Origin: Streptomyces sp. CB00455 | GTDB lineage: Bacteria; Actinomycetota; Actinomycetes; Streptomycetales; Streptomycetaceae | Assembly (NCBI RefSeq): GCF_001905445.1 | Contig: NZ_LIVQ01000012.1 | Coordinates: 1 to 64,000 of the forward strand | Direction of reading: 5' to 3' | Length of the DNA: 64,000 nucleotides | Shown: piece after piece, positions 23,032-62,429 of the stretch | Layout of the letters: the number at the start of each line of letters is the position of its first letter | Numbering within the stretch: position 1 is the stretch's first letter | Program-made: the position numbers and the translations under genes | Notes under the pieces: generated by a model | The model's database searches: none | What the model was told of the DNA's origin: nothing | What the model saw: only the letters and a program-made list of their open reading frames with translations

Positions 23032-24860
23032 GCGGCCACCGCCGCGAGCGCGGTGGCGGGCAGGGCCGGTGCGGTGGCGGCGGCCGGGCGGAACTGTTCG
23101 CGCCACACCTCGTGCACGAGCAGCGACCACAGGGCCAGGGCCGGGGTGTCGCCGGGCCGCTCGGCCTGCGCGGTGAACAGGGCGTCCACGGCCGCGGCGT
23201 CGAGCCGGCCGTCGGCCCGGAGCCGGTCGGGGGTGAGCAGGTCCCGTGCCTGTGCCCACAGGGGCTGGCCGGGGCGCAGCATCGCCGTGATGGGGAGGGT
23301 GAACGGCTGCTTGGGACGGGTGAGCACGCTGTCGGGCAGCAGCCCCGCGGCCGCCGCGTACAGGGTCCGCTTGACCTGGCCGTCGTACAGCCGCAGCCGG
23401 TCGGGCAGCGAGCGGCCGAGGGCGACGACGGAGCTCTGGCAGAACGGCAGCCGGACCTCGATCGAGCCGGCCATGCTCAGGTGGTCGACGCGTCTGAGGT
23501 GGTAGGCGGGCAGGCGGTGACCGAGCTCGAAGCGGGTGATGCGCTCCAGGACGGTGCCCGGGCCGTGCAGCAGGTCCTCTTGTGCCTCGGGCGGCAGCGC
23601 CGGTACCTCGCGCAGCAGGTCCCGGAAGGCGTCGGTGTAGAGCGAGCGGCGCAGGGCGGCCGGAGCGGCCGACAGCGCGTCGAGGTAGGCCGGTGCCCAG
23701 GCGGCGCCGGCCGCGGCGTTCTCGGCGGCCTGCCGCATCCGCCCGTACCCGCCGAACACCTCGTCGGCGGCGTCGCCGGTCAGCGCGACGGTGAAGCCGG
23801 CCGCGCGCACCGCCTTGAACAGGGCGTACGTGCTGAGCGCGATGGGGTCGGCGTTGGGCTGCCCCAGGTGCCAGACGGTCTCCTCCAGCAGCGCCGGGAA
23901 GTCGGCCGGGTCGATCTCCACCTGGTGGTACGCGGCTCGCGCGCGCTCGGCGGCCTGCCGGGCGAAGTGCCGTTCGTCGAAGGGCCAGGAGCCCTTGTAG
24001 GCGATGTTGAAGGAGTGCACCGGGCCGTGCTCGGCGGCCAGCGAGGTCACCAGGCTGGAGTCGAGGCCGCCGGAGGTGATGAGCGCGACGGGCACGTCGG
24101 CGACCAGCAGCCGTCCGACCTCTTCGCGCAGGGCGCGGCGGACCCGTACGGCCGTGGCGGCTCCGTCGCCGGGGCCCGGCGCGGGCAGTTCGGCGGGCGG
24201 GCGCCGCCGGCTGCGCGGGGTGCCGCCCAGAGTGCACACCATCGTCGTGGCGGGCGCCATGACCTCGACGCCCTCGAACATCGTCTCGCCGCCGAAGGGG
24301 GTGCGGGTGGCCAGGTAGGCGTCCAGGGAGGCCGCGCGCATCCGGGGCGGGGGCCCGCCGAAGCCGAAGAGGGCCGGGATCTCGGAGGAGAAGTGCAGCG
24401 AGCGCTCCGCCGGGTCCCAGCGGTAGTAGAGCGGCTTCATGCCGATCCCGTCGGTGGCCAGCAGCAGCCGCGGTTCCCGGCCGCGCAGGTCGACCAGGGC
24501 GATGGAGTACATGCCGTCGAGGTGGTCGGTGAAGTCGTCCCCGTACTCCAGGTAGAGGGCGGGGATGACGGCGCCGTCACAGCGGTCGTCGAAGGAGTGG
24601 CCGAGCCCTTCGAGGCGGTGGCGCAGCGCGCCGTGGTTGTAGATCTCGCCGTTGAAGACAGCCCGGACCGGGCCGCCGGCTCCGTAGGGCTGCTGTCCGC
24701 CGTCCAGGTCGACGACGGCGAGCCGGTTGTTGCCCAGTCCCCAGCCGGGTGCCCGGGAGATCCCGGTGGCGTCGGGGCCGCCGTGGCGCTGGAGCGCCGC
24801 GACGGTGCGCATCTCGTGCGGCGTGGCCGCCGCGTTGAAGTAGCCGTAGATCCGGCACAT
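23028..24860 (-). CDS. Glutamine-dependent amidotransferase, asparagine synthetase B type
   Basis: 610 residues. The N-terminal nucleophile Cys2 starts a class II glutaminase domain (MCRIYGYF; usual form is MCGIxG, so the Gly-Ile-Ala pocket is altered), with FNGEIYNH intact. The C-terminal synthetase domain has the ATP pyrophosphatase loop TSGGLDSS and GDAADEVFGGYGRM. It would adenylate a carboxylate and transfer glutamine-derived ammonia. A second AsnB-type gene sits at 55770, so each may amidate a different pathway acid, or one may form a lactam. Between cysteine-synthase-like (33-nt gap) and PrpF-like genes in the minus-strand operon. Confidence 0.9.
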   Translation of the reverse strand: MCRIYGYFNAAATPHEMRTVAALQRHGGPDATGISRAPGWGLGNNRLAVVDLDGGQQPYGAGGPVRAVFNGEIYNHGALRHRLEGLGHSFDDRCDGAVIPALYLEYGDDFTDHLDGMYSIALVDLRGREPRLLLATDGIGMKPLYYRWDPAERSLHFSSEIPALFGFGGPPPRMRAASLDAYLATRTPFGGETMFEGVEVMAPATTMVCTLGGTPRSRRRPPAELPAPGPGDGAATAVRVRRALREEVGRLLVADVPVALITSGGLDSSLVTSLAAEHGPVHSFNIAYKGSWPFDERHFARQAAERARAAYHQVEIDPADFPALLEETVWHLGQPNADPIALSTYALFKAVRAAGFTVALTGDAADEVFGGYGRMRQAAENAAAGAAWAPAYLDALSAAPAALRRSLYTDAFRDLLREVPALPPEAQEDLLHGPGTVLERITRFELGHRLPAYHLRRVDHLSMAGSIEVRLPFCQSSVVALGRSLPDRLRLYDGQVKRTLYAAAAGLLPDSVLTRPKQPFTLPITAMLRPGQPLWAQARDLLTPDRLRADGRLDAAAVDALFTAQAERPGDTPALALWSLLVHEVWREQFRPAAATAPALPATALAAVAA

Positions 24861-24892
24861 GTCTGCCTGTCTTTCCGTGAGGAGACGACGGG

Positions 24893-25819
24893 TCAGCCGC
24901 GTGCCGTGGACAGGTAGCGCTCCCCGCTGTCGGGGAAGACCGTGACCACCGTGGCGCCCGCCCAGCGCGGGTGCGCTGTGACGGCGCGGCTCGCCCAGGC
25001 CGCGGCTCCGGAGGAGACGCCGACCGGGAGACCGGTGGCGCGTACGATCTCGCGGGCCGTGGCGGCCGCGGCGTCGTCCGGCACGGCGACGACCTCGTCG
25101 ATGAGGGTCAGGTCGGTGATGTCGGAGAGGTAGCCGGCCCCGATGCCGGGGATGCCGTGGGGACCCGCCTCGCCGCCCGACAGGACGGCGGAGCGCGCCG
25201 GTTCGACGGCGACGACGTGGACGTCCCGGCGTTCCTTGAGGTAGCGGGCGGTGCCGCTGAGGGTGCCGCCCGTGCCGACCCCGCACACCAGCACGTCGAC
25301 GGCGCCGGCGGTGGCCTCCCAGATCTCGGGGCCGGTGGTGTCGTAGTGGGCCCGGGCGTTGGCGGGGTTGCGGTCCTGGTGCGGCACCCACGAGCCGGGG
25401 GTGTTGCGCTGCAGCTCCTCGGCGTGCGCCCAGGCGGCCATCAGCCCGTCCTGGTGCGGTACGAGGACCACCTCGGCGCCGAGCGCGGCCAGGATGAGGC
25501 GGCGCTCCTCGCTGGCGTTGTCGGGCATGACGATGACGCAGCGGTGGCCCCGGGGGGCGCACAGGGCGGCGAGGGAGATGCCGGTGCTGCCGGAGGAGCA
25601 TTCGATGACGGTGCCGCCGCTGCGGGGCAGCAGCCCCGACTCCTCGACGGCGCGCAGCATCGCGAGCGCGGCCCGGTCCTTGACGCTGGACAGGGGGTTC
25701 AGCATCTCCAGTTTGGCCAGCAGCCGGACCGTGTCCGCGAGCCCGGGCAGGGCGACTTCCAGCAGCGGTGTGCCGCCGACCAGGTCGTCCAGGGACCGGG
25801 CGGGCCGAGTCGTGGTCAC
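24893..25819 (-). CDS. Cysteine synthase family PLP enzyme (beta-substituted alanine synthase)
   Basis: 308 residues from a GTG with GGGGGAG just upstream; a start 21 nt earlier lacks a ribosome site. PLP Lys47 lies in LSSVKDRAA, the substrate loop reads SSGSTGIS, and GVGTGGTLSGTARYL is the phosphate-binding loop. The usual TSGNTG has become SSGSTG, which often marks family members using nucleophiles other than sulfide (for example 2,3-diaminopropionate, O-ureidoserine or heterocyclic-alanine synthases). In this operon it most likely builds a non-standard beta-substituted alanine. Followed by the amidotransferase after 33 nt. Confidence 0.88.
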   Translation of the reverse strand: MTTTRPARSLDDLVGGTPLLEVALPGLADTVRLLAKLEMLNPLSSVKDRAALAMLRAVEESGLLPRSGGTVIECSSGSTGISLAALCAPRGHRCVIVMPDNASEERRLILAALGAEVVLVPHQDGLMAAWAHAEELQRNTPGSWVPHQDRNPANARAHYDTTGPEIWEATAGAVDVLVCGVGTGGTLSGTARYLKERRDVHVVAVEPARSAVLSGGEAGPHGIPGIGAGYLSDITDLTLIDEVVAVPDDAAAATAREIVRATGLPVGVSSGAAAWASRAVTAHPRWAGATVVTVFPDSGERYLSTARG

Positions 25820-25849
25820 TGCTCCCCCAAGGAGTGTCATGCCGGGCGG

Positions 25850-29157: not shown

Positions 29158-30393
29158 ATGACGCAGCCCGCCGCGTCCCAGCGGCTACTGATGGTGATGC
29201 CCTACAGCCAGTTCGTCCGCAAGGCGGTGGAAGCGGGGTTCGCCGTCTGGTCGATCTGGGACCCGGCACTGCGCGAGCAGGAGTACCTGGACGAGGTCGC
29301 CCTCTACTCCCGGGAACTCCTGCTCACCGATTTCGGCGACAGCCAGGGCCTTCGGGAGCTGATCGTCGAGACCGCCCGCGCCCATGCCGTCGACCACATC
29401 CTGCACCTGGGATCCGAGGACACGATGGACGTGGCGGTCGCGGCGGCCGAGGAGCTCGGCCTGTCCCCCAACGGGTCCGACGCGGTGCACCTGCTCAACG
29501 ACAAGGCGGCGATGCGCCGGCTGCTGAACGCCGCCGGCCTCTCGGTGGTGCGGGCCGAGCGTGTGGCGACCGTGGAGGCCGTCCGAGCCGCCGTCGGCGA
29601 ATTCGGCCTTCCGGCGATCGTGAAGCCGTCCGATGCGTCGGGGAGCCGCGGCGTTGCCCTCATCCGGGAGGCCGGCGACCTCGACGTGTGGGCCGACCAG
29701 GTACGCGATACCGGGCTCGGAGGCGGCCCGTTCCTCGTCGAGGAGTATCTGGAAGGATTCGAGTTCAGCGTCGAGACCCTCACCGCGGACGGTGTCCACC
29801 ACGTCGTCGGCATTACGGCGAAGCAGACCAGTGGGCCGCCCGGCTTCGTCGAGACCGGGCACATCCACCCGGCCCCGCTGTCCGTGTCGCAGGAGAGCGC
29901 TGTCCGGGAGGTGGTGACGGGCCTGCTGGACCTGGCCGGTCACCGGTTCGGCCCCGCGCACACCGAGGTGATCCTCACCGCCTGCGGTCCGCGGATCGTG
30001 GAGTCCCAGGCCCGTCTGGGCGGCGACCGCATCCCGCTCCTGGTGGAGGTGGCCCGCGGCTACGACCTCGAAGCGGCCGTCTTCCGCGCCCTGGCCGGCG
30101 AGCCGGTCGCCGTGCCGACGGTCCGCCGGAGCGCGGCCATCGGCTTCTTCCGTTTCCCGGCCGGTCCGCTGGAATCGGTCACGGGTCTCGAGCCGGTCCG
30201 CGCCCTGCCGTACGTCCACGCCCTGCACTTCCCGTACCGTCCCGGCGATCTGCTGCCGGCCACCACCGACTCGTTCACCCGCCACGGGTACGTCGTCGTC
30301 GACGGCGCGTCCCCCCAGGAGGTGACCGAGCGGATCGACTCCGTACGGGAGCGCCTGCGGGTGGTCGTCCGGGAAACCGTCCTTGCCACCTGA
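29158..30393 (+). CDS. ATP-grasp ligase 1 (L-amino acid ligase / BacD-like)
   Basis: 411 residues. N-terminal Rossmann-like domain (to about 110), then ATP-grasp with LPAIVKPSDASGSRGV (Lys for ATP), PFLVEEYLEGFEFSVET and the Mg-binding GPRIVESQARLGGDRIP. Layout and length match amino-acid ligases that join carboxylate and amine through an acyl phosphate. GGAG precedes the ATG; the gene starts 40 nt after the MFS gene. With the second ligase directly downstream it could make two successive amide bonds, giving a dipeptide- or tripeptide-type product without an NRPS. Confidence 0.87.
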   Translation: MTQPAASQRLLMVMPYSQFVRKAVEAGFAVWSIWDPALREQEYLDEVALYSRELLLTDFGDSQGLRELIVETARAHAVDHILHLGSEDTMDVAVAAAEELGLSPNGSDAVHLLNDKAAMRRLLNAAGLSVVRAERVATVEAVRAAVGEFGLPAIVKPSDASGSRGVALIREAGDLDVWADQVRDTGLGGGPFLVEEYLEGFEFSVETLTADGVHHVVGITAKQTSGPPGFVETGHIHPAPLSVSQESAVREVVTGLLDLAGHRFGPAHTEVILTACGPRIVESQARLGGDRIPLLVEVARGYDLEAAVFRALAGEPVAVPTVRRSAAIGFFRFPAGPLESVTGLEPVRALPYVHALHFPYRPGDLLPATTDSFTRHGYVVVDGASPQEVTERIDSVRERLRVVVRETVLAT

Positions 30394-30406
30394 AGGGAAC
30401 CATCCG

Positions 30407-31651
30407 TTGAGTACCCGTACCGTCCTGCTGATCGGCGGGGTCGACGTCCACCTGGAGCGCTTCAAGGCGCTCGGCGTGCGCGTCGTCCTCATCCAGCACC
30501 CCGACAAGGTCACCGCCTTCCAGACGCGGACCGCCGACGTCACCCTGGTCGTCGACTACACCGACTGGAACACCGTCCTGCCTTTCGCCGAGGCTGCGCG
30601 CACGGTGTACGGCGTCGATGCCGTGGTCTCCCTGACCGAGCCCGGGCTGAATCCCGCGGCCCGGCTGGCCGACCTGTTCGGCCTCAGCGACGGCCGGCGC
30701 TACGAGGTGAGCCGCAGGATGCGCGACAAGTGGCTGATGCGGCGCCACCTCATCTCCCGGGGGCTGCCCGCCCCGCACTGCGCGCGCGTCGAGGGCCGGG
30801 AGTCGCTGGAAGCCTTCGGGGAGCTGGCCGGCTACCCGTTCATCGTCAAGCCGGTCTCCACGACGGCCGGCTTCGGGCTGATCCGGGCCGAGAGTCCCGA
30901 GGACCTGTCCCGGGTGTGGGCGCGCGTCCAGGAACTGGACGGCGGCCGTACCGACCGGGGTTCGACGATGTTCGTGGTGGACGGCTTCCTGATGGAGTCG
31001 TACATCGACGGACCTGAGTTCAGCGTGGAGGCGCTGAGCTTCGCCGGCCGGCACGTGATCGTGGCCGTCACGGAGAAACTTGTGGACGAGACCCACTTCG
31101 CCGAGCTCGGTCACGCGCTGCCGGCCAGGCTCTCCGAGGGCGACCGCGACCGGATCACCGGGGCCGTCGAGCAGTTCCTCACCGGCATGGGCGTCACCGA
31201 TGGCCCCAGCCACACCGAGATCCGCCTCAGCAGCCGGGGTCCGGTCGTCATCGAGTCCCACAACCGGCTGGGCGGGGACCACATCGTCGAGCTCGTCGAG
31301 GCCGCGTACGGGATCGACATGGTCGCCTACGGGGCGGCCTGGGCGGTCGGTCTCACCGAGGCGCTGACGGTGGGCCCCGACCCGACGGGCGCGGCCTGCA
31401 CCCGCTTCGTGCTGCGCAGCCCCGGCACCGTGGTCGCCGTGTCCGGGGTCGGGGAAGTGGCCGACCGGCCCGACGTACTGCTCGCGCAGGTCTCTGTGGC
31501 GCCGGGCGACACCGTGCGCCCGTTGCGCGACAACTGGGACCGGCTCGGCTGTGTGGTGGTGCGCGCGGCGGACACCGACAGTGCGATCGAGCTGTGCGAG
31601 CGTCTGGCCCGCGAGGAGATCCGCATCGACATCGAGCCGGCGGCTGCCTGA
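30407..31651 (+). CDS. ATP-grasp ligase 2 (L-amino acid ligase-like)
   Basis: 414 residues from a TTG preceded by GAAGGGA, 14 nt after ligase 1; an earlier in-frame TTG at 30383 overlaps ligase 1 and is less likely. ATP-grasp features: YPFIVKPVSTTAGFG, MESYIDGPEFSVEAL and GPVVIESHNRLGGDHI. Similar in order and spacing to ligase 1, pointing to an old duplication with distinct substrates. It closes the operon before the long hairpin at 31676. Expected to act in the cytoplasm on a free amino acid or peptide and a pathway acid, or on the 60-aa peptide if that is a carrier. Confidence 0.85.
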   Translation: MSTRTVLLIGGVDVHLERFKALGVRVVLIQHPDKVTAFQTRTADVTLVVDYTDWNTVLPFAEAARTVYGVDAVVSLTEPGLNPAARLADLFGLSDGRRYEVSRRMRDKWLMRRHLISRGLPAPHCARVEGRESLEAFGELAGYPFIVKPVSTTAGFGLIRAESPEDLSRVWARVQELDGGRTDRGSTMFVVDGFLMESYIDGPEFSVEALSFAGRHVIVAVTEKLVDETHFAELGHALPARLSEGDRDRITGAVEQFLTGMGVTDGPSHTEIRLSSRGPVVIESHNRLGGDHIVELVEAAYGIDMVAYGAAWAVGLTEALTVGPDPTGAACTRFVLRSPGTVVAVSGVGEVADRPDVLLAQVSVAPGDTVRPLRDNWDRLGCVVVRAADTDSAIELCERLAREEIRIDIEPAAA

Positions 31652-42547: not shown

Positions 42548-43933
42548 TCAGACCAGCAGGGAGCTGCCCGGGGCGACGTCGCCGCGGAACAACCCGTCGG
42601 GATCGATCCGCAGCCGAACCCGGTCCACGGCGAGGACGCCCTCGGCGTCCAGGTGCCCTTGGGGCTGCTCCAGGGAGGCGACGAAGGTCGGCGCGGTACG
42701 GCCGGTGTCCCAGCGGCCGAGCGCTTCGCGGACCAGCGCGCAGTGCTCGCGGATCTCCTGCTCGGTGGCGTCGCCGCCGGGAACTCCGGCGCCCGAGTAG
42801 GCGTACCGGGCGTCGAGGCGGCCGAGCGCGCCGGAGCCGGGGGGCGCCGTGGCGAGCGCGCCGCCGAGCTGGCGCAGTTCGGCGACGGTCAGGGCCGAGC
42901 CCGGCCGGTCGACGGTCACGCGCAGGAACTCGGCGATGCCCTCGTCACCGAGCTCGCCGAGCAGCATGTGGTCGCCGAGGACGGGCACCGGCTCCGGGGG
43001 GTCCATATGGGTGTCGGGTACGAGGGTGGGGCCGGCTTCCTGCCAGGTGTCCATCACCGGCTCGGCGGCGGCTCGCAGCGGGGCGAGGAGATCCTGTGCC
43101 TGCTGTCGCATCGCGTCGAGGTCGTCCTCGCCCGGGGCGAGCACCACACCGTCCAGGCACAGGATGGGGCCGGCCGTCAGGACGGCCGGGATCTCCGGAA
43201 GCCTGGGAAGGTTCATGACCCGGATGGAGGTGGTGGCCGTGGCAGGGGCCGTCTCGGTCCACCTCCGCCACAGGGGCAGCAGCCGGGCCGCGTCGGTGGC
43301 GGGCCAGAAGGCGGCGCCGGTCACCACGGCGGTGGCCGGGAAGAGCGCGACCTCGACGGCGGTGACGACGCCGAACCCTCCGCCACCCCCGCGCAGCGCC
43401 CCGAACAGCGCCGGATCGTCGGTGGCGTCCACGCGCCGCAGTTCTCCGTCGGCGGTGACGAGTTCCACGGCGCGCAGGCTGTTCACGGCGAGTCCGGTGT
43501 AGCGCGCGTACATGCTCAGGCCGCCGTTGAGGAGGTAGCCGACGACACCGACAGTGGGCGACGAGCCGTGTGGCGCGGCGAGCCCGTGCCGGGCCGCGGC
43601 CTCGACGACGGAGGCCCACCGGGTGCCCGCGGGCACCCGGGCGACGCGGCGCAGCGCGTCGATCTCGACGTCTGCGCCCAGGGCCGTGCGGATCAGCAGG
43701 TCGTCACCCATGGGGCGGGCGGTCGCGGAGGCGTGGCCGGTCGCCTGCACCCGTACGCCCAAACCCTGTCGGCGCGCGTGGCGGATCGCCGAGCGGACCT
43801 CGTCGACGGAGTGCGCGGTCACGGCGGCGGCGGGTGACACCGGAGCGAAGAGGTTGAAGACCTGGGTGGCCGCCTCGTAGGCCGGGTCTGCGCGCAGCGC
43901 CGTGTCCGCAGGGGACTCGTTGACCATGGTCAT
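42548..43933 (-). CDS. FAD-linked oxidoreductase, berberine-bridge-like, second copy
   Basis: 461 residues. PCMH-type FAD domain with QATGHASATA (His67 as expected flavin link), LNGGLSMYARYTGLAVN and LRGGGGGFGVVTAVE; the C-terminal RLRIDPDGLFRGDV is a variant of the family tail. No second attachment Cys (the region reads HGSSPTVGV). More diverged from the gene at 1313 than expected for a recent duplicate. GGAGG lies 10 nt before the ATG. Promoter carries a copy of the 16-nt element. Likely an O2-dependent oxidase of unknown substrate. Confidence 0.85.
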   Translation of the reverse strand: MTMVNESPADTALRADPAYEAATQVFNLFAPVSPAAAVTAHSVDEVRSAIRHARRQGLGVRVQATGHASATARPMGDDLLIRTALGADVEIDALRRVARVPAGTRWASVVEAAARHGLAAPHGSSPTVGVVGYLLNGGLSMYARYTGLAVNSLRAVELVTADGELRRVDATDDPALFGALRGGGGGFGVVTAVEVALFPATAVVTGAAFWPATDAARLLPLWRRWTETAPATATTSIRVMNLPRLPEIPAVLTAGPILCLDGVVLAPGEDDLDAMRQQAQDLLAPLRAAAEPVMDTWQEAGPTLVPDTHMDPPEPVPVLGDHMLLGELGDEGIAEFLRVTVDRPGSALTVAELRQLGGALATAPPGSGALGRLDARYAYSGAGVPGGDATEQEIREHCALVREALGRWDTGRTAPTFVASLEQPQGHLDAEGVLAVDRVRLRIDPDGLFRGDVAPGSSLLV

Positions 43934-53932: not shown

Positions 53933-55453
53933 TCAGCCGGGCAGCCGGACCGACAGCTTGTGGCGGAACACGTCGCGCGGGTCGTAGGCCTTCTTGACCT
54001 GCTGCAGGCGCGGGTAGTTGTCCTTGTAGTAGAGCGTGTGCCACGGCACGCCCGATGTGTTCCACTCGGGATCGGCCAGGTCGCTGTCCGCGTAGTTGAC
54101 GTACGAGCCGTCGTTGGCATCGTTCGGCACGGGCACGCCGCCGGTGGCCGCGTAGACGTCGCGGTACATCTCCCTCAGCAGGCGGATGTTGGTCTCGTCG
54201 GCGCCCTCGTCGCCCCACACCGACATGTAGGCGGCCTTGAGGACCGAGTCGCGCTGGGCGACGGCGGTGGCATCCGGGGCGGTGGTGTTCACCCGGCCGC
54301 CGTAGCCGATGAGGATCAGCTGTGTCGGGGCGGCCTCACCGGTGGTCAGGTGCCGGTACAGGGTCGCCGTCTGCTCCGGCGAATAGCCCTTGCGCAGATA
54401 GGCCGCCTTGATCTTGATCCGGCGTGTGAACGGGTCGCCCGGGTCGCCCCAGTTCGGGTACGACGAGAAGTAGAGCCAGGGATTGACCTGCTGTTGCTGG
54501 AACAGTGGCGGAACCTCGACACCGGCCGACACCTCCTCGAAGAACGTGGTCATCAGCTTCTCGGCGCCGGGCACGTCGTCGTCGATGTGCGCGCCCACCG
54601 TCAGGCCGAAGCCGGAGCGGTGCGTCCCGTGGAAGTAGCCGGCCAGCGGCGCGTACGGCGAGTCGGCGCCGCTGTTGCGCTCGAACCAGGCTCCGAAGTT
54701 GCTCTGGAGCCGGGTGAAAGCCGCTTCGGTCATGTGCTCCCAGGACCAGACGACCATGCCGCTGCGCCAGCGGGACGGTGCTTTGGGCAGCAGTGCGGCC
54801 GGGTCGCCCGCTCCCGGGTCGGCGTCGGGGGCGCGCATCCAGTAGCGCGTCACCACCCCGAAGGTGCCGCCGCCACCACCGGTGTGCGCCCACCACAGGT
54901 CGTGGTGCGGGTCGTCGGGCTCGCGGGTGGCCACGACGGCCCGCGCGACACCGTCCTCGCCGACGACCACGACCTCCACGGCGTACAGGTAGTCCACGAC
55001 GGCGCCGAGACTGCGGGAGAGGGGACCGTATCCGCCACCCACGATGTGGCCGCCGGCGCCCACCTCCGGGCACTCGCCGCCGGGAATGGTGACGCCCCAG
55101 CCCTTGAACAGGGTCCGGTAGACGTGGCCGAGCGTGGCTCCGGCCTCGATGGAGAAGGCCCCCCGCTCCTTGTCGTAGCCCACGGCGGTCATCTCGGACA
55201 TGTCGAGCAGGACTTCGATGCCATGGGCCGTGAAGTCCTCGAAGCCGTGGCCGCCGCTGCGCACGGAGATCCGCTTGCCGGCCGCCACGGCCTCGGTCAC
55301 CGCGGCCGCCACCTGGTCCGTCGTGGTGACGACGCGGACGTAGTCGGGGCTCGCCGGGAAGCGGTGGTTGGTGCCGCGCAGCATGCTGGGGTAGCGCGGG
55401 TCATCGGCGGTGATAGTGGCAGGTCCAAATGCCGGGGTGCCCGTATCGGTCAC
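53933..55453 (-). CDS. FAD-linked oxidase with bicovalent flavin motif
   Basis: 506 residues. Unlike the two other family members in the window it has both flavin-attachment residues: RSGGHGFEDF (His69) and GGECPEVGAGGH (Cys128), the bicovalent 8-alpha-histidyl, 6-S-cysteinyl type found in hexose oxidases and glycopeptide oxidase Dbv29. The C-terminal YDPRDVFRHKLSVR is the family tail. High-potential bicovalent flavins usually act on bulky alcohols or sugars with O2. GGAGGAAC precedes the GTG. Divergent from the asparagine synthetase operon; promoter with a weak copy of the 16-nt element. Confidence 0.9.
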   Translation of the reverse strand: MTDTGTPAFGPATITADDPRYPSMLRGTNHRFPASPDYVRVVTTTDQVAAAVTEAVAAGKRISVRSGGHGFEDFTAHGIEVLLDMSEMTAVGYDKERGAFSIEAGATLGHVYRTLFKGWGVTIPGGECPEVGAGGHIVGGGYGPLSRSLGAVVDYLYAVEVVVVGEDGVARAVVATREPDDPHHDLWWAHTGGGGGTFGVVTRYWMRAPDADPGAGDPAALLPKAPSRWRSGMVVWSWEHMTEAAFTRLQSNFGAWFERNSGADSPYAPLAGYFHGTHRSGFGLTVGAHIDDDVPGAEKLMTTFFEEVSAGVEVPPLFQQQQVNPWLYFSSYPNWGDPGDPFTRRIKIKAAYLRKGYSPEQTATLYRHLTTGEAAPTQLILIGYGGRVNTTAPDATAVAQRDSVLKAAYMSVWGDEGADETNIRLLREMYRDVYAATGGVPVPNDANDGSYVNYADSDLADPEWNTSGVPWHTLYYKDNYPRLQQVKKAYDPRDVFRHKLSVRLPG

Positions 55454-55769: not shown

Positions 55770-57632
55770 ATGTGCGGGATCGCTGGATCCATGGCGCTCC
55801 GAAAGGGCGTGACCGTCGACCCGTCGGTCCTCACCCGAATGACCGGGACCCTTTACCACCGCGGTCCGGATTCGGACGGCGCTTTCCTCGCTGACGGTCT
55901 CGGGCTCGGATTTCGCCGCCTGAGCATCAATGACCTCGGCGGCGGAAGCCAGCCGATGTCGAACGAGGACGGCAACGTCGTCATGGTGTGCAACGGGGAG
56001 ATCTTCAACCACCGTGAGCTGCGCGCCGAGCTGACGGCCAAAGGGCACCGCTTCCGCACCGAGTGCGACGTCGAGGTCCTGGTCCACCTCTACGAGGAGG
56101 AGGGCACCGGTCTGCTCCGGCGCCTCAACGGCCAGTTCGCCTTCGCGATCTACGACAAGGCGCTGCGGCGGCTGTTCCTCGCCCGCGACCACGTCGGGAT
56201 CCTGCCGCTGCACTACGCGCTGACCGCCGACCACTTCGTCTTCGGGTCGGAGGCCAAGGCGGTGCTGGAGCACCCGGGGGTCGGCCGCGAGGTGGACCTG
56301 ACCGGGCTCGACCAGGTGCTGACCTTCCCCGGGCTGGTGAGCCCCCGGACCATGTTCCGGGGCATCAGCGCCTTGCGCGGGGGTCATTACCTGCTCGTCC
56401 AGGACGGCTCCGTGCAGGAGTTCCCGTACTGGGACCTCACCTACCCGCGCGCCGGCGAGCTGGAGGTCAAGCCCGACCGGTACTACGTCGAGACCCTGCG
56501 CGAGCTGCTCACCGAGGCGGTGCGGCGCCGGCTGCGGGCGGACGTGCCCGTGGGTTTCTACCTCAGCGGCGGACTGGACTCCTCGCTGATCGCAGGGATC
56601 GCGGCCGAGCTCGCACCGCCCACCGACTCGTTCTCGATCACGTTTCCGCAAGCCGCCATCGACGAGTCCCGCCACCAGCGCCTGATGGCGCAGAAGGTGT
56701 CCTCCCGTCACCACGAGAGAGAGTTCTCCACCGCGGACATCACCGAGGGCCTCCAGCGGATGGTGCTGCACGCCGAAACCCCGGTGAAGGAGACCTACAA
56801 CACCTGCTCCATGGTGCTGGCCCAGCTGGCGCGCGAGAGCGGGACGACCGTGATCCTCACGGGCGAGGGCGCGGACGAGCTGTTCGGCGGCTACGTCGGC
56901 TACCGCTTCGACCGGCTGGGCCGCGGCGGCGGCCGGGGTGGCGGCGACCTCGGCGAAGCCCTGGAGGACGACGTCCGCAGGCAGCTGTGGGGCGACTCCG
57001 GGGTCTTCTACGAACGCCGCTACCACGCATGGCGCGAGGCCAAGCTCGGGCTCTACTCCGCCGGTGTCCGCGAGGCCTTCCACGAGAGCGACTGCCTGCG
57101 CTTCCCGCCGGTCGACCCGGCGAGCCTGACCGGGCGGGACCCGCTGGACCAGCGCTCCTACCTCGACTTCCGGATGCGGTTGTCGGACCACCTGCTGTCC
57201 GACCACGGCGACCGGATGGCGATGTCCCATTCCGTGGAGGCCCGCTACCCGTTCCTGGACCGTGAGGTCGTGGAGTTCGCGACCCGGGTCCCCGCGCACC
57301 TGAAGGTGAACCCTCTCGGGGAGAAGTACGTGGTGCGCCAGGCAGCACAGGGCCTGGTGCCTCCGGAGATCATCGACCGTGAGAAGTTCGGCTTCCGGGC
57401 GCCGGGCAGCCCCGCGCTGCTGCGCGCGGGCATCGAGTGGATCAACGACATGCTCTCCCCGGCGCGGATCCGGCGCCAGGGGTACTTCGATCCCGGCGCC
57501 GTGGAGCGACTGCGGGCCCGGTACACGAGCGACGGGTTCGAGATCCACCCGCACTACGGCGACGACCTGCTGCTCGTCGTCCTGACTTTCGGCATCCTCC
57601 TGGACACCTTCTCCCTGGCGGACCACGGATGA
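55770..57632 (+). CDS. Asparagine synthetase (glutamine-hydrolysing), cluster copy
   Basis: 620 residues. Glutaminase domain begins MCGIAGS (Cys2) with YHRGPDSDG and CNGEIFNH; the synthetase domain has LSGGLDSSLI, GEGADELFGGYVGYR and SVEARYPFLDREVVEFA. All expected residues for glutamine-dependent amidation are intact, and it is closer to canonical AsnB than the copy at 23028. GGAGGAGG precedes the ATG. First gene of the operon with the A-T didomain, the PP-loop fusion and the racemase, so it may feed asparagine (or an amidated analogue) to the adenylation domain. Confidence 0.94.
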   Translation: MCGIAGSMALRKGVTVDPSVLTRMTGTLYHRGPDSDGAFLADGLGLGFRRLSINDLGGGSQPMSNEDGNVVMVCNGEIFNHRELRAELTAKGHRFRTECDVEVLVHLYEEEGTGLLRRLNGQFAFAIYDKALRRLFLARDHVGILPLHYALTADHFVFGSEAKAVLEHPGVGREVDLTGLDQVLTFPGLVSPRTMFRGISALRGGHYLLVQDGSVQEFPYWDLTYPRAGELEVKPDRYYVETLRELLTEAVRRRLRADVPVGFYLSGGLDSSLIAGIAAELAPPTDSFSITFPQAAIDESRHQRLMAQKVSSRHHEREFSTADITEGLQRMVLHAETPVKETYNTCSMVLAQLARESGTTVILTGEGADELFGGYVGYRFDRLGRGGGRGGGDLGEALEDDVRRQLWGDSGVFYERRYHAWREAKLGLYSAGVREAFHESDCLRFPPVDPASLTGRDPLDQRSYLDFRMRLSDHLLSDHGDRMAMSHSVEARYPFLDREVVEFATRVPAHLKVNPLGEKYVVRQAAQGLVPPEIIDREKFGFRAPGSPALLRAGIEWINDMLSPARIRRQGYFDPGAVERLRARYTSDGFEIHPHYGDDLLLVVLTFGILLDTFSLADHG

Positions 57633-57646
57633 GACAAGGAAGCAAG

Positions 57647-59488
57647 ATGACCTTCGAACCGATCCACGAGCTGGTGGGGAAGGCGATCGAGCGGTTCCCG
57701 GACCGCGTGGCCGTCGAGTCCCCGCAGGGCCGCCTCACCTACGCCGAGCTGGACGAGCGGGCCCAGCGCATCGCCGGCGCCCTGCGGGCCGCGGGTGCGG
57801 GCGCCGGGTCCTTCGTCCCCGTACTGGCACGGGACTGCCGCGAGCTGGTCGCCTCCGTGCTCGGGATCTTGCGTATCGGCGGAGTCGTGGTACCCCTGGA
57901 CCTGTCCGCGTCGCCCGCCCGGCTGCGGTTGATCGTCGCCGACGTCGCCCCTGGGTGGGCCGTCCTCGGCTCCGCTCCGGACGCGGTGGCGGCGCAGGTG
58001 CTCGCGGATGCCGCTCCGGACGCGCGCACGGTCACTGCGGACCCCCGGGCGTCAAGCACCGCGACCCCCGTGACCCCGCACCGGGCCACCCCCGACGATC
58101 CCTGCTACGTCTTCTACACCTCCGGTACCACAGGCCGTCCCAAGGGCATCGTGGGCCGGCTGGGATCCGTCACGCACTACATCCAGTGGGAGACCGGGCT
58201 GCTCGGCGTCACCGCGGACTGGCGGATCGGCAACCTCGTCTCGCCCGCCTTCGACGCCGTGATGCGGGACGTGTTCGTGCCGCTGAGCACCGGCGGCACC
58301 TTCGTCGTGCCGCCGCCCGACACCCTGCTCGACCCGGCGGCGCTGGCCCGCTGGATCGACGACGCCCGCATCGACCTGGTGCACTGCGTCCCGTCCCTGT
58401 TCCGCGGGCTGGTGGACGCGGCGCTCGCGGCCGACCTCACGCTGTCGTCCCTGCGGTGCGTCGCGCTGTCCGGCGAGCGGCTCGCGCCCGCCGACGCCGG
58501 GCGCTGGTTCGGCAGGCACGGCGACCGGGTCCGGCTCCTCAACTTGTACGGGCCGTCGGAGACGACGATGACCAAGACCTTCCACTTCCTGACCCGGCGG
58601 GACGCCGAACGGGCCTCCGTGCCCGTCGGACGACCGATGCCGGACACCGAGGTGCTGCTGCTGGACGAGCGGGGAGCAGCCGTCGAGCCGGGGACGGTCG
58701 GCGAGATCCACCTGCGGACGCCCCACCGCTCGCTGGGGTACCTGGGCCTGCCCGAGGAGACCGCCCGGGTCTTCGTACCGAACCCGCTCACCGGTGATGC
58801 GGACGACATCGTGTACCGCACCGGTGACTTCGGTCGCCTGCTGGAGGACGGCACGCTGGAGTTCCTCGGCCGCAAGGACCACCAGGTCAAGATCGGCGGC
58901 GTCCGGGTCGAGCTCACCGCGGTCGAAAGCCTCCTGCGCGCCCACCCGGCCGTCGCCGAGGCGGCCGTCAGCCTGGTGGAAGACGCCGGCGCGACGTACC
59001 TGGGCGCCCACCTCGAACTGTCCCGGGACGCCGCGGACTCCGATCCCGAGGTGCTGCACACCGCCCTGCGCGAGCACCTGCGCGAGCACCTGCCCGACAG
59101 CGCGGTACCGGCGGTTTTCGTCCCGGTGGCCGGGCTCCCCCGCACCCTCAGCGGAAAGATCGACCGTGGCGCGCTGCCCGCGCCGGTGCGGCGCACCGTC
59201 TCCGACGTCCGCGGCGGCGAGCCGCGGACGCCGGTGGAGCGGACCGTGGCCGACCTGTGGCTCGGCCTCCTGCCTGTGGGCCGGGTGGGCCTGGAGGACG
59301 CCTTCTTCGATTCGGGCGGCACCTCGCTCCTCGTGGTCGAACTGCTCTCCCGGGTCAACCGCGCCTTCGGTGTGTCGGTACCGCTGCGCGACTTCCTCCG
59401 GTCGCCCACGATCTCGACGCTCGCCGAGGCAGTCGAACGCGAACTGCTGGCCGCCGACGCACCGCTCGACGACCTCCTCGCCATCTAG
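57647..59488 (+). CDS. Free-standing NRPS adenylation-thiolation didomain
   Basis: 613 residues. Adenylation motifs A3 YTSGTTGRPKG, A5 NLYGPSETT, A7 YRTGDFGRLLEDG, A8 GRKDHQVKIGGVRVEL and A10 LSGKIDRGALP, then a carrier domain with FFDSGGTSLLVVEL (Ser560 for phosphopantetheine). There is no condensation or thioesterase domain. In the A4 region (PAFDAVMRDVF) the Asp expected to bind the amino group is present, but the usual Trp position is Arg, which may favour an acidic or amide side chain. Start at 57647 follows AAGGAAG; an earlier ATG at 57629 overlaps the AsnB stop. Confidence 0.92.
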   Translation: MTFEPIHELVGKAIERFPDRVAVESPQGRLTYAELDERAQRIAGALRAAGAGAGSFVPVLARDCRELVASVLGILRIGGVVVPLDLSASPARLRLIVADVAPGWAVLGSAPDAVAAQVLADAAPDARTVTADPRASSTATPVTPHRATPDDPCYVFYTSGTTGRPKGIVGRLGSVTHYIQWETGLLGVTADWRIGNLVSPAFDAVMRDVFVPLSTGGTFVVPPPDTLLDPAALARWIDDARIDLVHCVPSLFRGLVDAALAADLTLSSLRCVALSGERLAPADAGRWFGRHGDRVRLLNLYGPSETTMTKTFHFLTRRDAERASVPVGRPMPDTEVLLLDERGAAVEPGTVGEIHLRTPHRSLGYLGLPEETARVFVPNPLTGDADDIVYRTGDFGRLLEDGTLEFLGRKDHQVKIGGVRVELTAVESLLRAHPAVAEAAVSLVEDAGATYLGAHLELSRDAADSDPEVLHTALREHLREHLPDSAVPAVFVPVAGLPRTLSGKIDRGALPAPVRRTVSDVRGGEPRTPVERTVADLWLGLLPVGRVGLEDAFFDSGGTSLLVVELLSRVNRAFGVSVPLRDFLRSPTISTLAEAVERELLAADAPLDDLLAI

Positions 59489-59496
59489 GGGCCCAC

Positions 59497-61692
59497 ATGA
59501 CCACCCAACTCGCTCCGCAGCCTGTCGCCACCTCCGCCGTCACCCAGGCGCGGGCCTGTGACCGCTGCGGCATCAGCGGCCGCTACCCCGGTATCACCTT
59601 CGATGCGTCGGGCGTATGCGACCTGTGCGCGATGTACGGGGCGAAGGAGCGGGACATCCTGTCGTACTTCGGCGACGTGGACGCCTTCGTGCGTCTGGTG
59701 CGCGCCCGCGCCGAGGAGCGCGGGTCGCACTACGACTGCCTGCTGCTCTACAGCGGCGGCAAGGACAGCTCGTACGTCCTGTACCGGCTGATCGAACTCG
59801 GTCTGCGCGTGAGGACCTTCACCTTCGACAACGGATTCATCTCCAAGACGGCCCTGCGCAACGTCGAGACGATCACCTCCGAGCTCGGCATCGAGCACGT
59901 CACCGCCACGCACGCCGACCAGAACAAGGTCTTCCTGCAGAGCCTCCAGCAGCACAAGAGCGTGTGCAACGGGTGTTTCCGCTCGCTGCTGGACCTCAGC
60001 ACCCAGCACGCCCACGACCTGGGCATCCCGACCATCGTCACGGGTCTCTCGCGCGGGCAGATCATGGACGAGCGGCTGAGTTGGTTCCACAACCAGGGGA
60101 TCTTCGACCCGGCGGAGATCGAGCCCCGGCTCAAGGCCGGCCGCAGCGTGTACCACCAGTCCGGCGGTGCCATCGGCGCCGAGGCGGTCGACTCCGTCGA
60201 GGTGGTGGATTACTACCGGTACTCCGACGTCACCAAGGACGGCATCCGCGCACTGCTGAAGTCGCGGTCGGACCTGTGGTCCCAGCCCGGGGACACCGGG
60301 TTCTGCAGCTCGAACTGCATGATCAACGATGCCGGCGTCCTCGTGCACACCCGGGAGCGCGGTTTCCACAACTACGAGGCGCCCACCCGCTGGGAGGTCC
60401 GCCTGGGGCACCTGGAGCGCAGCGAGGCGGACGAGGAGCTGCGCGAGCCTGCCGCGACCCCGCGCGTGCAGAAGATGCTGCTCCAGATCGGTTACCCGCT
60501 GCCCGAGGCGGGCAGCCCCGTCACCCACGCCGAAGCATCCGGGGCGGAGCGCACCTCGGTGGCCCCGCCCGCTCCGGCGGTGCGGGAGGCCGCGCTGACG
60601 CCCGCTCAGCACGAGGTGCTCCTGCGGGGCGCCTCCGCGCCGGCCCTGCAGGGCCGGACGTTGCTGCTGGAGGCCTCGGACGGCGCCGACTCCGGCAGGG
60701 TCCGGCGGGCCGCGCTCCAGCTGCTGCTGCACCACGAGGCACTGCGGCTGCGGTTCACGCACGAGGGCGGCACATGGCGCCAGTACGACGCCGGTGTCGC
60801 CGGCGCCTTGCCCGTGCTGCGCCTGGACCTCTCGGCGCGGCAGCCATCGCAGGAGGCGGAGGCGCTGCGCACCGCTGTGGAGCGGCTGCGCTCCCGGCTG
60901 AACCTCACCGACGGCCCGCTGCTCCAGATCGCGCTCGTCGACCGCGGGTCCCGGCCCGCCCGGCTCCTGCTGGTGGTCCACGAGCTGTTGGCGGACACCG
61001 CCTCCTGGCGGGTACTGCTGCGTGACCTGTGCACGTTGTGGACGGCGCCGCAGGGCAGGGCTCAGCTCCCGCCGGCAGGCGGGTTCCTGGAGCGTGCCGT
61101 GGCCCTGGCCGGTGAGCCGGTTACAGGCGGGGCAGGCTACGGGCGGTCCGGGCCTCCGGCCGGCTCCGCCGGCGACGGGGCTCCGGTACGGATCCGATGG
61201 GGCTGCGGGGCCCCGGTGCCTGCGGCCGTGGTGGCCCGGGCGCTGTCGCAGTCGCTCGCCTCTCTCGGTGACGCGCCGGAGATCGAAGTGGTCGACCACA
61301 CCGCTGGAGACGGGCAGGGCAGTATCGGCCGCTGGTCGCGGGCCGGGGTCGCGACGCCGGATGCGGAGGGTGACACGGATGTCTATGCGGATGGCGAGGG
61401 GTACGGAGCTTCGGATGCCGAGGCCCTGATCCGCTACGAGCACTTCGGCGACCTCGCCGGCCTGCTGCCCCCGGACGCGCCCCTGGCCGTCGTGGCGGCG
61501 GACGAGGTCGACTTCACCGTGCTGCCGGGCACCGGCCGGGACACCGTGACCGTCAACGGCGTCGTACGGGAGGGAACCTTGTACCTGGACTGGTGGTGCA
61601 GCCCCTCGCGGCGGAGCCGCCTGCTGGCGGCCGCGCTGCCGGAGCGCGTGGCGCGACGGCTGGCGGGATCCGCGGAGCCCGGGCCGCGATGA
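59497..61692 (+). CDS. PP-loop amidotransferase fused to degenerate condensation-like domain
   Basis: 731 residues. Residues 1 to about 355 resemble N-acetyl sugar amidotransferases (WbpG-like): zinc Cys pairs (21/24, 41/44), ATP loop YSGGKDSSY (86-92) and VCNGCF (157-160). Residues about 365-731 look like an NRPS condensation domain: LTPAQHEVLL start, LHHEALRLRF and the region of the HHxxxDG motif, which here reads HELLADT (His495 to Thr501), so the catalytic second His is Glu and Gly is Thr. That half is unlikely to condense; it may dock the neighbouring carrier domain. Starts 9 nt after the A-T gene. I recognise no family with this fusion. Confidence 0.8.
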   Translation: MTTQLAPQPVATSAVTQARACDRCGISGRYPGITFDASGVCDLCAMYGAKERDILSYFGDVDAFVRLVRARAEERGSHYDCLLLYSGGKDSSYVLYRLIELGLRVRTFTFDNGFISKTALRNVETITSELGIEHVTATHADQNKVFLQSLQQHKSVCNGCFRSLLDLSTQHAHDLGIPTIVTGLSRGQIMDERLSWFHNQGIFDPAEIEPRLKAGRSVYHQSGGAIGAEAVDSVEVVDYYRYSDVTKDGIRALLKSRSDLWSQPGDTGFCSSNCMINDAGVLVHTRERGFHNYEAPTRWEVRLGHLERSEADEELREPAATPRVQKMLLQIGYPLPEAGSPVTHAEASGAERTSVAPPAPAVREAALTPAQHEVLLRGASAPALQGRTLLLEASDGADSGRVRRAALQLLLHHEALRLRFTHEGGTWRQYDAGVAGALPVLRLDLSARQPSQEAEALRTAVERLRSRLNLTDGPLLQIALVDRGSRPARLLLVVHELLADTASWRVLLRDLCTLWTAPQGRAQLPPAGGFLERAVALAGEPVTGGAGYGRSGPPAGSAGDGAPVRIRWGCGAPVPAAVVARALSQSLASLGDAPEIEVVDHTAGDGQGSIGRWSRAGVATPDAEGDTDVYADGEGYGASDAEALIRYEHFGDLAGLLPPDAPLAVVAADEVDFTVLPGTGRDTVTVNGVVREGTLYLDWWCSPSRRSRLLAAALPERVARRLAGSAEPGPR

Positions 61693-62429
61693 CCGCCCCG
61701 GCAGGAACCCTCGGCGTGCTCGGCGGCATGGGTCCCGCTGCGACGGCGGAGTTCTTGCGGCTGCTCGCGGCGCTCGTCCCCGCGACGACCGACCAGGAGC
61801 ACCCGCGGATCATGATGCTCTCCGAGCCGTCGATCCCCGACCGCAGCGACTCCCTGCTCGACGGCAGCGACGCGCCCCTCGCGGGCATCCTGGACGGGCT
61901 CACGACGCTGACGGGCTGGGGGGCGGACCTGCTGGCCGTGCCGTGCAACACCGCGCACGTCTACATCGACCGGATCCGGGACGAGCTGCCGGTCCCGCTC
62001 GTCCACATCGTGGATGCGACCCTGCAGGCGGCCAGGCTGCTGAGCCCGACGGGCGGCTGGCTGACGGCCACCTCCGGGACCGTGGCCGCCGGCCTGTACC
62101 AGCGGCGGGCGGCGGAGCTCGGCTACCGGCTGCTCGTTCCGGCGCCCGGGATGCAGGAGCTGATCCAGGAGGCGGCCGTCCTGGTGAAGGCCGGCCACAC
62201 GGAGCATGCCGGGCGGGTGTTCGCCTCGGCGGTGCGCAGTCTGTGGCGGCGCGAGCGATTGCCGGTGGTCACGGCCTGCACCGAGCTGCCGCTGGCCTAC
62301 GACAGCGCGGGCCTGCCGGAGGGGATGACCGTCTCCAGCCTCGGCGCGCTGGCCTCGGCCTGCGCGCACGAGCTCTACGTGACGCCGCTCCTGCGCGCCG
62401 GAGCGCCCCTGACCCTCGCCCGCGCCTGA
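61689..62429 (+). CDS. Aspartate/glutamate racemase family protein
   Basis: 246 residues, overlapping the upstream gene by ATGA. LGVLGGMGPAAT at the start, the two catalytic Cys in AVPCNTAHV and TACTELPLA, and IPDRSDSLLDG match aspartate racemase (PLP-independent). It should interconvert L- and D-Asp, or act on a related 1,3-dicarboxylate (the family includes maleate isomerase and hydantoin racemase). Downstream of AsnB and an A-T didomain it probably supplies a D-configured acidic residue. It ends the operon before the hairpin at 62485. Confidence 0.93.
   Translation: MTAPAGTLGVLGGMGPAATAEFLRLLAALVPATTDQEHPRIMMLSEPSIPDRSDSLLDGSDAPLAGILDGLTTLTGWGADLLAVPCNTAHVYIDRIRDELPVPLVHIVDATLQAARLLSPTGGWLTATSGTVAAGLYQRRAAELGYRLLVPAPGMQELIQEAAVLVKAGHTEHAGRVFASAVRSLWRRERLPVVTACTELPLAYDSAGLPEGMTVSSLGALASACAHELYVTPLLRAGAPLTLARA

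What the first reader, a model, noticed from the sequence alone, without database searches (positions are those of the whole stretch)
59497..61692. PP-loop amidotransferase fused to a dead condensation-like domain
The N-terminal half has the zinc Cys pairs and SGGKDSS loop of sugar amidotransferases; the C-terminal half looks like an NRPS condensation domain in which HHxxxDG has become HELLADT. No glutaminase domain is attached. Placed after a free-standing A-T didomain and AsnB, this suggests the dead domain docks the carrier so that the PP-loop enzyme adenylates and amidates (or thiolates) the tethered residue in trans. I know of no described enzyme with this layout.
Basis: partly seen in the sequence, partly recalled or inferred. 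Interest (0 to 1): 0.78.

Follow-up and report, generated by a model that had tools for sequence, protein, structure and literature searches.

The report
Trans-acting asparagine-amide modifier fused to relic epimerase
A Streptomyces antibiotic gene cluster carries an enzyme that appears to be an asparagine-modifying domain which escaped from inside a peptide-synthetase module and now works as a separate protein with a decayed epimerization domain attached, which suggests a nitrile or rearranged asparagine in an enediyne-type product.

Summary
The ORF at 59497-61692 is real and intact; 11 of 11 proteins compared (window's included) have the fusion. The PP-loop half is not a sugar amidotransferase. 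Its next relatives (38-44% identity) are nested inside asparagine-type adenylation domains, the architecture of the AMDH domain of cystobactamid CysH and albicidin AlbIV, which turns carrier-bound Asn into beta-cyanoalanine or iso-Asn. Four fused relatives still carry both halves of that host subdomain around the PP-loop, so the family descends from an A(PP-loop)-T-E-like module. It travels with asnB, a free A-T and an Asp-type racemase. In the window's genome and on one plasmid this cassette lies in a syntenic block with an enediyne PKS; in one other genome it lies beside a FAAL-like/NRPS cluster. Best reading: the PP-loop domain, perhaps with a [4Fe-4S] cluster, activates the side-chain amide of a carrier-bound Asn-type residue in trans, giving a nitrile or iso-Asn, with E* as docking partner. 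Thioamidation is the main rival. New variant of a known kind.

The parts
59497..61692 (+). PP-loop-E* fusion protein, 731 aa (including stop)
   Evidence: intact ORF; fused in 11 of 11 proteins read, window's included
59551..60495 (+). AMDH-like PP-loop (alpha-ANH) domain, residues 19-333, with C21/C24/C41/C44, SGGKDSS 86-92, C157/C160, C270/C274
   Evidence: WbuX/QueC/ThiI-type matches; 38-44% to seven nested NRPS domains; tree
59965..60318 (+). span of the putative TtcA/TtuA/CtaC-type iron-sulfur triad C157, C160, C274
   Evidence: invariant in 11 of 11 fused proteins; CxGC and STNC in 9 of 9 nested loci and in the Roseovarius one; absent in the one WbuX aligned
60589..61692 (+). degenerate epimerization (E) domain, residues 365-731; HHxxxDG is HELLADT (E496, D500 invariant); the EGHGR Glu position aligns with D600, followed by H601
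   Evidence: hhalign 7e-32 over 340 columns, 30 shuffles far lower; invariant columns
57647..59488 (+). free-standing A-T didomain (an in-frame ATG at 57629, overlapping the asnB stop, is a possible earlier start); pocket letters DARHASLMT
   Evidence: Pfam AMP-binding, AMP-binding_C, PP-binding; code by alignment; sequence
55770..57632 (+). AsnB-type glutamine-dependent amidotransferase, begins MCGIAG
   Evidence: TIGR01536 450.8 bits against cut-off 267.1, scanned from 55785, i.e. without its first 5 residues; nearest PDB sequence 7ylz hydroxyamidotransferase; start
61689..62429 (+). Asp/Glu-racemase family protein; its ATG overlaps the stop of the fusion gene (ATGA); PCNTAH and TACTE present (catalytic Cys by recall)
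   Evidence: Pfam Asp_Glu_race 2.9e-37; NF052483 cysteate racemase 184.2 bits against cut-off 190; nearest PDB 1jfl aspartate racemase; overlap

Best explanation
The protein is a trans-acting AMDH-type enzyme. SHOWN by sequence: its PP-loop half groups with domains nested in Asn-type A domains; four relatives keep the split relic of that A subdomain; the C half is a changed E domain; it co-occurs with AsnB, a free A-T and a racemase. INFERRED: AsnB makes (or completes on the carrier) an asparagine-type side-chain amide, the racemase sets or supplies the D or L form of the acidic precursor, and A-T holds the residue as a thioester. The E* domain, by ancestry a carrier-binding fold, helps bring the loaded T domain to the PP-loop site. 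There ATP adenylates the side-chain amide oxygen, and loss of AMP gives beta-cyanoalanyl-S-T; alternatively the activated amide rearranges to iso-asparagine. The three-cysteine site may hold a [4Fe-4S] cluster that takes part.
For: Nested homologues lie in A domains with Asn-type code DLTK[VIM]GEV[GA] in 10 of 10. PMC12283262 (passages) gives DLTKIGEVGK as compatible with cyanoalanine, which it finds only in albicidin. AMDH in CysH dehydrates or isomerizes T-bound Asn, and the AMDH homologues its authors found by BLAST were all inserted in A domains predicted Asn-specific (PMC7966384, passages); the 342-aa alpha-ANH insert of AlbIV is in PMC8949500 (passages). Fused plus nested domains are split from two outgroup rows with support 100/99. 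Relic A-sub flanks: profile score 96.0 against at most 15.4 in 30 shuffles. asnB, A-T, PP-loop-E* and racemase are together in 10 of 11 loci, window included; the G377 contig begins inside its A-T gene, so asnB cannot be seen there. CysH is dark brown, which fits a metal at C157/C160/C274.
Against: The cassette's A-T does not carry the Asn code of the nested A domains: its letters are DARHASLMT, at best 6 of 10 (Lys assumed) like DPRHVSLLAK, reported for Asn-activating domains. The Cys triad is equally that of CtaC thioamide synthetase. No usable structure was obtained (pLDDT 35.7). When a WbuX and the L014 protein were in the tree, the deep forks, including that between fused and nested, were not resolved. 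The enediyne tie is not uniform: in G418 the cassette lies 2.4 Mb from the enediyne PKS; in G053 the two are on different contigs; G043 and G241 gave no match to the enediyne PKS.
Confidence: 0.58

Rival explanations
1. It is a CtaC-like thioamide (or thioacid) synthetase: the [4Fe-4S] cluster presents sulfide and replaces the oxygen of a carrier-bound amide or carboxylate.
For: CtaC works on a carrier-bound peptide and needs C154, C157, C284 and the PP-loop (PMC6772006, parts 1-2 of 3 read); C157, C160, C274 here have a similar layout.
Against: The nearest relatives are in Asn modules like AMDH and share the same triad, so the triad does not favour thioamidation. No desulfurase or rhodanese was seen in the (incomplete) annotation of the NBC_01216 plasmid; a bacilliredoxin gene there has no match in the window, in the window contig's next 33 kb or in L007-L010.
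Confidence: 0.17
2. One reading: the PP-loop adenylates a carrier-bound acid or amide and adds ammonia released by AsnB, giving an amide or amidine.
For: Weak WbuX match and a neighbouring glutamine-dependent AsnB.
Against: AsnB has its own synthetase domain; WbuX identity is 22% against 38-44% for nested domains; the triad is absent in the WbuX aligned.
Confidence: 0.12
3. The E-like domain is not dead but re-tooled: invariant E496 replaces the catalytic His and D600-H601 stand at the catalytic Glu, so it still does acid-base work (racemization, hydration or lactam chemistry) on the carrier-bound residue.
For: E496, D500, D600 and H601 are invariant in 11 of 11, in a half where only 42 of 328 ungapped columns are invariant.
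Against: The half is poorly conserved (34-63% identity to the window's, against 66-87% for the PP-loop half), the middle has shrunk, and the conserved positions may be structural. Not exclusive of the best explanation.
Confidence: 0.15
4. A vestigial protein with no current function, kept by operon hitch-hiking.
For: Relic A-sub halves and a changed E domain show loss of parts.
Against: 165 of 309 ungapped columns of the PP-loop half are invariant over loci in at least two kinds of cluster, SGGKDS and the Cys triad among them.
Confidence: 0.03

Closest known systems
AMDH domain of cystobactamid CysH and albicidin AlbIV (alpha-ANH-like insert in an Asn-specific A-T module)
   Same: PP-loop domain with SGGKD; near relatives of about 335 aa nested in the C-terminal subdomain of Asn-type A domains; stand-alone A-T carrier in the pathway
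   Different: Here the domain has left its A domain, is a separate protein, carries a relic E domain instead of A and T, and comes with asnB and a racemase; the partner A-T has another code. The CysH paper says all homologues its authors found were inserted in A domains
CtaC, thioamide synthetase of closthioamide
   Same: AANH/PP-loop superfamily, three-cysteine [4Fe-4S] motif, thiotemplated action
   Different: In the parts read, CtaC is not reported as derived from an A domain or fused to an E domain; it acts on a peptidyl chain
NRPS epimerization (E) domains (such as that of tyrocidine synthetase A, PDB 2xhg)
   Same: Whole-length profile match; Asp of HHxxxDG in 11 of 11, first His in 10 of 11
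   Different: Catalytic second His is Glu in 11 of 11, EGHGR lost (D-H at that place), middle region shortened
WbuX/WbpG-type N-acetyl sugar amidotransferases (TIGR03573)
   Same: N-terminal Cys pairs and SGGKDS region
   Different: Score below cut-off; the WbuX aligned lacks the C157/C160/C274 triad; different neighbourhood
QueC/ToyM and ArtA ATP-dependent nitrile synthetases
   Same: ATP activation of an amide as proposed here (PMC13060819, passages)
   Different: Other substrates, not shown to be carrier-bound; only weak profile matches (QueC 0.016, 'nitrile synthetase' 9leh 0.077)

Membership tests
AMDH (CysH/AlbIV type) | PP-loop alpha-ANH domain with SGGKD motif | tested here: met
   SGGKDSS 86-92; S-G-G-K-D-S invariant in alignments A1 and A2
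AMDH (CysH/AlbIV type) | Nested in, or derived from nesting in, an A-domain C-terminal subdomain | tested here: met
   By descent only: the window protein shows no relic itself; relic A-sub halves flank the PP-loop in 4 of 4 group-2 relatives, and the next relatives are nested in A domains
AMDH (CysH/AlbIV type) | Sits in, and acts on Asn loaded by, its own Asn-specific A domain | tested here: not met
   No A domain in cis; partner A-T code DARHASLMT is not the Asn code of the nested family. Hence a works-like claim, not strict membership
AMDH (CysH/AlbIV type) | Sequence homology to CysH or AlbIV themselves | not tested
   their sequences were not in hand; no direct alignment was made
AMDH (CysH/AlbIV type) | Dehydratase or aminomutase activity | not testable with these tools
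   needs enzyme assay
CtaC thioamide synthetase | TtcA/TtuA-type three-cysteine motif | tested here: met
   C157, C160, C274 invariant in 11 of 11; spacing compared with numbers given in PMC6772006, not by alignment
CtaC thioamide synthetase | Sulfur insertion on a carrier-bound amide | not testable with these tools
   needs assay; CtaC sequence not in hand
N-acetyl sugar amidotransferase WbuX | TIGR03573 score over curated cut-off | tested here: not met
   89.6 against 203.2 bits
NRPS condensation domain | Whole-domain similarity to C domains, with HHxxxDG | tested here: not met
   only the first half aligns; HELLADT. Pfam PF00668, which also covers E domains by recall, does match
NRPS epimerization domain | Whole-domain profile similarity | tested here: met
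   hhalign 7e-32, 340 columns; the 7 E domains were taken from hits of this protein, so the choice favours them
NRPS epimerization domain | Catalytic HHxxxDG second His and EGHGR Glu | tested here: not met
   His is Glu in 11 of 11; Glu position aligns with Asp in 11 of 11

The most novel reading that the evidence does not exclude
A tailoring domain that evolved inside an adenylation domain has escaped and become a portable trans-acting enzyme. Intermediates still carry the two halves of its host subdomain, and its former E domain has been re-tooled (Glu and Asp-His in place of His and Glu) into a carrier-docking or catalytic partner. The cassette adds an ATP- and [4Fe-4S]-dependent nitrile (or iso-Asn) unit to an enediyne and, independently, to a reductase-terminated lipopeptide.
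Probability: 0.4. Interest if true: 0.78.

Novelty: new variant of a known kind. Interest (0 to 1): 0.62.

Why it matters
It gives a stepwise fossil series (domain nested in A, then split A relic plus E*, then free PP-loop-E*) for how a domain inserted in an assembly-line enzyme can become a trans-acting tool. It predicts an Asn-derived nitrile or iso-Asn building block for an enediyne-type gene cluster whose product I could not name. It points to a conserved three-cysteine site in AMDH-like domains, which would offer a testable reason for the unexplained brown colour of CysH and a handle on the unknown AMDH mechanism. The four-gene cassette is small enough to test in vitro.

Tried and rejected
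Sugar-amidotransferase reading: rejected on score, identity and missing triad. Condensation-domain reading of the C half: rejected by profile comparison with 7 E domains (7 of 7 with HHxxxDxxSW, 6 of 7 with EGHGR) and 9 C domains (8 of 9 with HHxxxD). The E domains were chosen among hits of this very protein, the C domains were not, so the contrast is tilted; the PDB search, not so chosen, also ranks entries such as tyrocidine synthetase A 2xhg (3.8e-15) above 4znm, named C-domain (4.6e-7). Structure prediction with 5 sequences gave pLDDT 35.7 and was not used or searched further. A first tree with a WbuX and the L014 PP-loop as outgroups was spoilt by very long branches; the tree cited leaves these two out. 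Paper searches that could have shown this chemistry in an enediyne, or this layout, showed none in the listings seen, which are capped. In one search the part after the PP-loop could be read for only 3 of 9 nested loci, because my anchor missed it in the other 6; the part before it was read in 9 of 9. One search repeated the genomes and adds nothing. G398 looks like L010 and was not counted in the 11.

Full report
OBSERVATION. The frame 59497-61692 is open for 731 codons. Eight bases separate it from the stop of the A-T gene, and its stop overlaps the ATG of the racemase gene. The N half has C21/C24/C41/C44, SGGKDSS and, further on, C157-N-G-C160 and C270-S-S-N-C274. NCBIfam WbuX matches residues 19-185 at 89.6 bits, well under its cut-off of 203.2. 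Pfam Condensation matches 387-517. HELLADT is at 495-501.

RELATIVES. The search for related loci gave 4 fused relatives (L007-L010) and a plasmid search a fifth (Streptomyces sp. NBC_01216). Whole-genome searches found matches in 5 of 100 relatives (own genome included; one of the five, G066, a 30% match to the PP-loop half alone), 8 of 392 genomes of the genus (own included) and 4 of 396 of the phylum (own included; G581, G600, G801). I compared 11 distinct fused proteins: the window's, L007-L011, G418 (82-87% identical to the window's in the PP-loop half, 57-63% in the C half) and a second group G043, G053, G241, G377 (66-70% and 34-41%). All 11 are single frames.

WHAT THE C HALF IS. A profile of the 11 C halves aligned to 7 epimerization domains over 340 columns (E 7e-32), against 165 columns (3e-12) with 9 condensation domains. 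The E domains came from hits of this protein, which tilts the contrast. Column-shuffled controls reached at most a score of 23.1 against 240 (30 shuffles). The tail beyond residue 525 alone still matched E (44.1, 2e-5) rather than C (20.1) domains. The catalytic second His is Glu in 11 of 11, and the Glu of EGHGR aligns with Asp, followed by His, in 11 of 11; these are among only 42 invariant columns of 328. So it is a decayed or re-tooled E domain.

WHERE THE PP-LOOP HALF COMES FROM. On a Roseovarius plasmid, and in actinobacterial genomes G581 and G600, the same domain (40-41% identical) is nested inside an A domain, within its C-terminal subdomain. In the class of G581, 8 of 296 genomes have it, at 9 places; 9 of 9 show an A domain before the insert, and the continuation after it was read in 3 of 9. 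Counting Roseovarius, 10 of 10 have an Asn-type code DLTK[VIM]GEV[GA] (the tenth residue was not checked). The fused group-2 proteins keep the split remains of this subdomain on both sides of the PP-loop in 4 of 4. The joined flanks match a profile of A subdomains with score 96.0, 30 shuffles reaching at most 15.4, and the A10 lysine is gone. The window's own protein no longer shows the remains. In the tree without the longest branches, fused plus nested domains are set off from two long outgroup rows (100/99), fused ones form a group (99/99) and nested ones a weaker one (80/65). With a WbuX and the L014 protein included, the deep forks were not resolved.

KNOWN PRECEDENT. CysH of cystobactamid carries such a domain (AMDH); it dehydrates carrier-bound L-Asn to beta-cyano-L-Ala, or isomerizes it to iso-Asn. 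Its mechanism is stated to be unknown, and the protein is dark brown; the authors say the homologues they found by BLAST were all inserted into A domains predicted Asn-specific (PMC7966384, passages). AlbIV has a 342-residue insert with SGGKD (PMC8949500, passages). PMC12283262 (passages) gives DLTKIGEVGK as compatible with cyanoalanine; four of the nested A domains here show its first nine letters. I did not align CysH or AlbIV themselves. Against that statement, the fused proteins here are AMDH-like domains outside any A domain.

THE CYSTEINES. C157, C160 and C274 are invariant in the fused proteins and present in 9 of 9 nested loci, in Roseovarius, and in three more distant PP-loop proteins, but not in the one WbuX aligned. 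CtaC, a carrier-dependent thioamide synthetase, uses C154, C157 and C284 for a [4Fe-4S] cluster (PMC6772006, parts 1-2 of 3). I infer that AMDH-like domains hold such a cluster. This fits the brown CysH but leaves thioamidation open.

CONTEXT. asnB, A-T, PP-loop-E* and racemase occur together in 10 of 11 loci, window included; the contig of G377 begins inside its A-T gene, so asnB cannot be seen. In the window's contig the genes continue into beta-tyrosine genes (named after the annotation of the plasmid) and an enediyne PKS with 82% identity to that of the NBC_01216 plasmid, in a syntenic block. In G053 the cassette lies beside C-A-T-reductase, FAAL-like, C-A-T and C genes ('FAAL-like' is my reading of the Pfam matches), and that genome's enediyne PKS is on another contig; G043 and G241 gave no match to the enediyne PKS; G377 has pieces of one on other contigs. 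In G418 the cassette is 2.4 Mb from the PKS, and only residues 452-740 of the neighbouring molybdopterin oxidoreductase are found beside it, which I read as a rearrangement breakpoint. The tie to the enediyne product is therefore likely for the window's genome but not proven.

MECHANISM. Shown by sequence: origin, domain identity, partners. Inferred: the carrier of A-T presents an Asn-type residue; the PP-loop adenylates its amide; loss of AMP gives a nitrile, or rearrangement gives iso-Asn; E* assists docking. The A-T code (DARHASLMT in the window) has its Arg and His in 11 of 11 by eye and shares 6 of 10 letters (Lys assumed) with DPRHVSLLAK, reported for Asn-activating domains. An acidic residue such as Asp, later amidated by AsnB on the carrier, is also possible. 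AsnB is nearest in the PDB to 7ylz, labelled hydroxyamidotransferase, and the racemase to aspartate racemase 1jfl.

VERDICT. New variant of a known kind. The capped listings of paper searches showed no paper on this fused layout or on AMDH chemistry in an enediyne; the library holds only open-licence papers.

Noticed in passing
L012 17415-25463 and L013 (end of record): Roseovarius pelagicus and Pseudohalocynthiibacter plasmids share a region of polysaccharide genes (several with the same protein accessions) beside a PP-loop match nested, in Roseovarius, in an Asn-type A domain of an NRPS, next to a carrier protein, an acyl-CoA dehydrogenase and a HupE/UreJ-like gene.
   Followed up: partly
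L014 11743-13431: On a Streptomyces NBC_00470 plasmid an orphan PP-loop protein with CxxC and STNC cysteines sits near an acyl carrier protein and a ketosynthase; a possible further carrier-dependent PP-loop enzyme.
   Followed up: no
23031-25840 (- strand): A second AsnB-like gene; its long open frame begins inside a PLP-dependent (PALP) enzyme gene at 24896-25840, so its true start is probably further in.
   Followed up: no
29158-31648: Two tandem ATP-grasp proteins with the L-amino-acid-ligase C-terminal domain.
   Followed up: no
42548-43933 and 53933-55453 (- strand): Two FAD-linked oxidases (BagK/FevA-like; the second with a berberine-bridge domain) conserved on the NBC_01216 plasmid.
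   Followed up: no
G418:C1 4738055-4755727 and 7125003-7161898: In this genome the cluster is split: the cassette part lies 2.4 Mb from the enediyne PKS part, and only the last 289 residues of the neighbouring oxidoreductase remain beside the cassette part, suggesting a large rearrangement.
   Followed up: partly
L008 1455-2323 and 13730-15912: In the draft genome of Streptomyces sp. I6 two cluster genes (LLM oxidoreductase, molybdopterin oxidoreductase) match in two pieces, probably frameshifts in the sequence.
   Followed up: no
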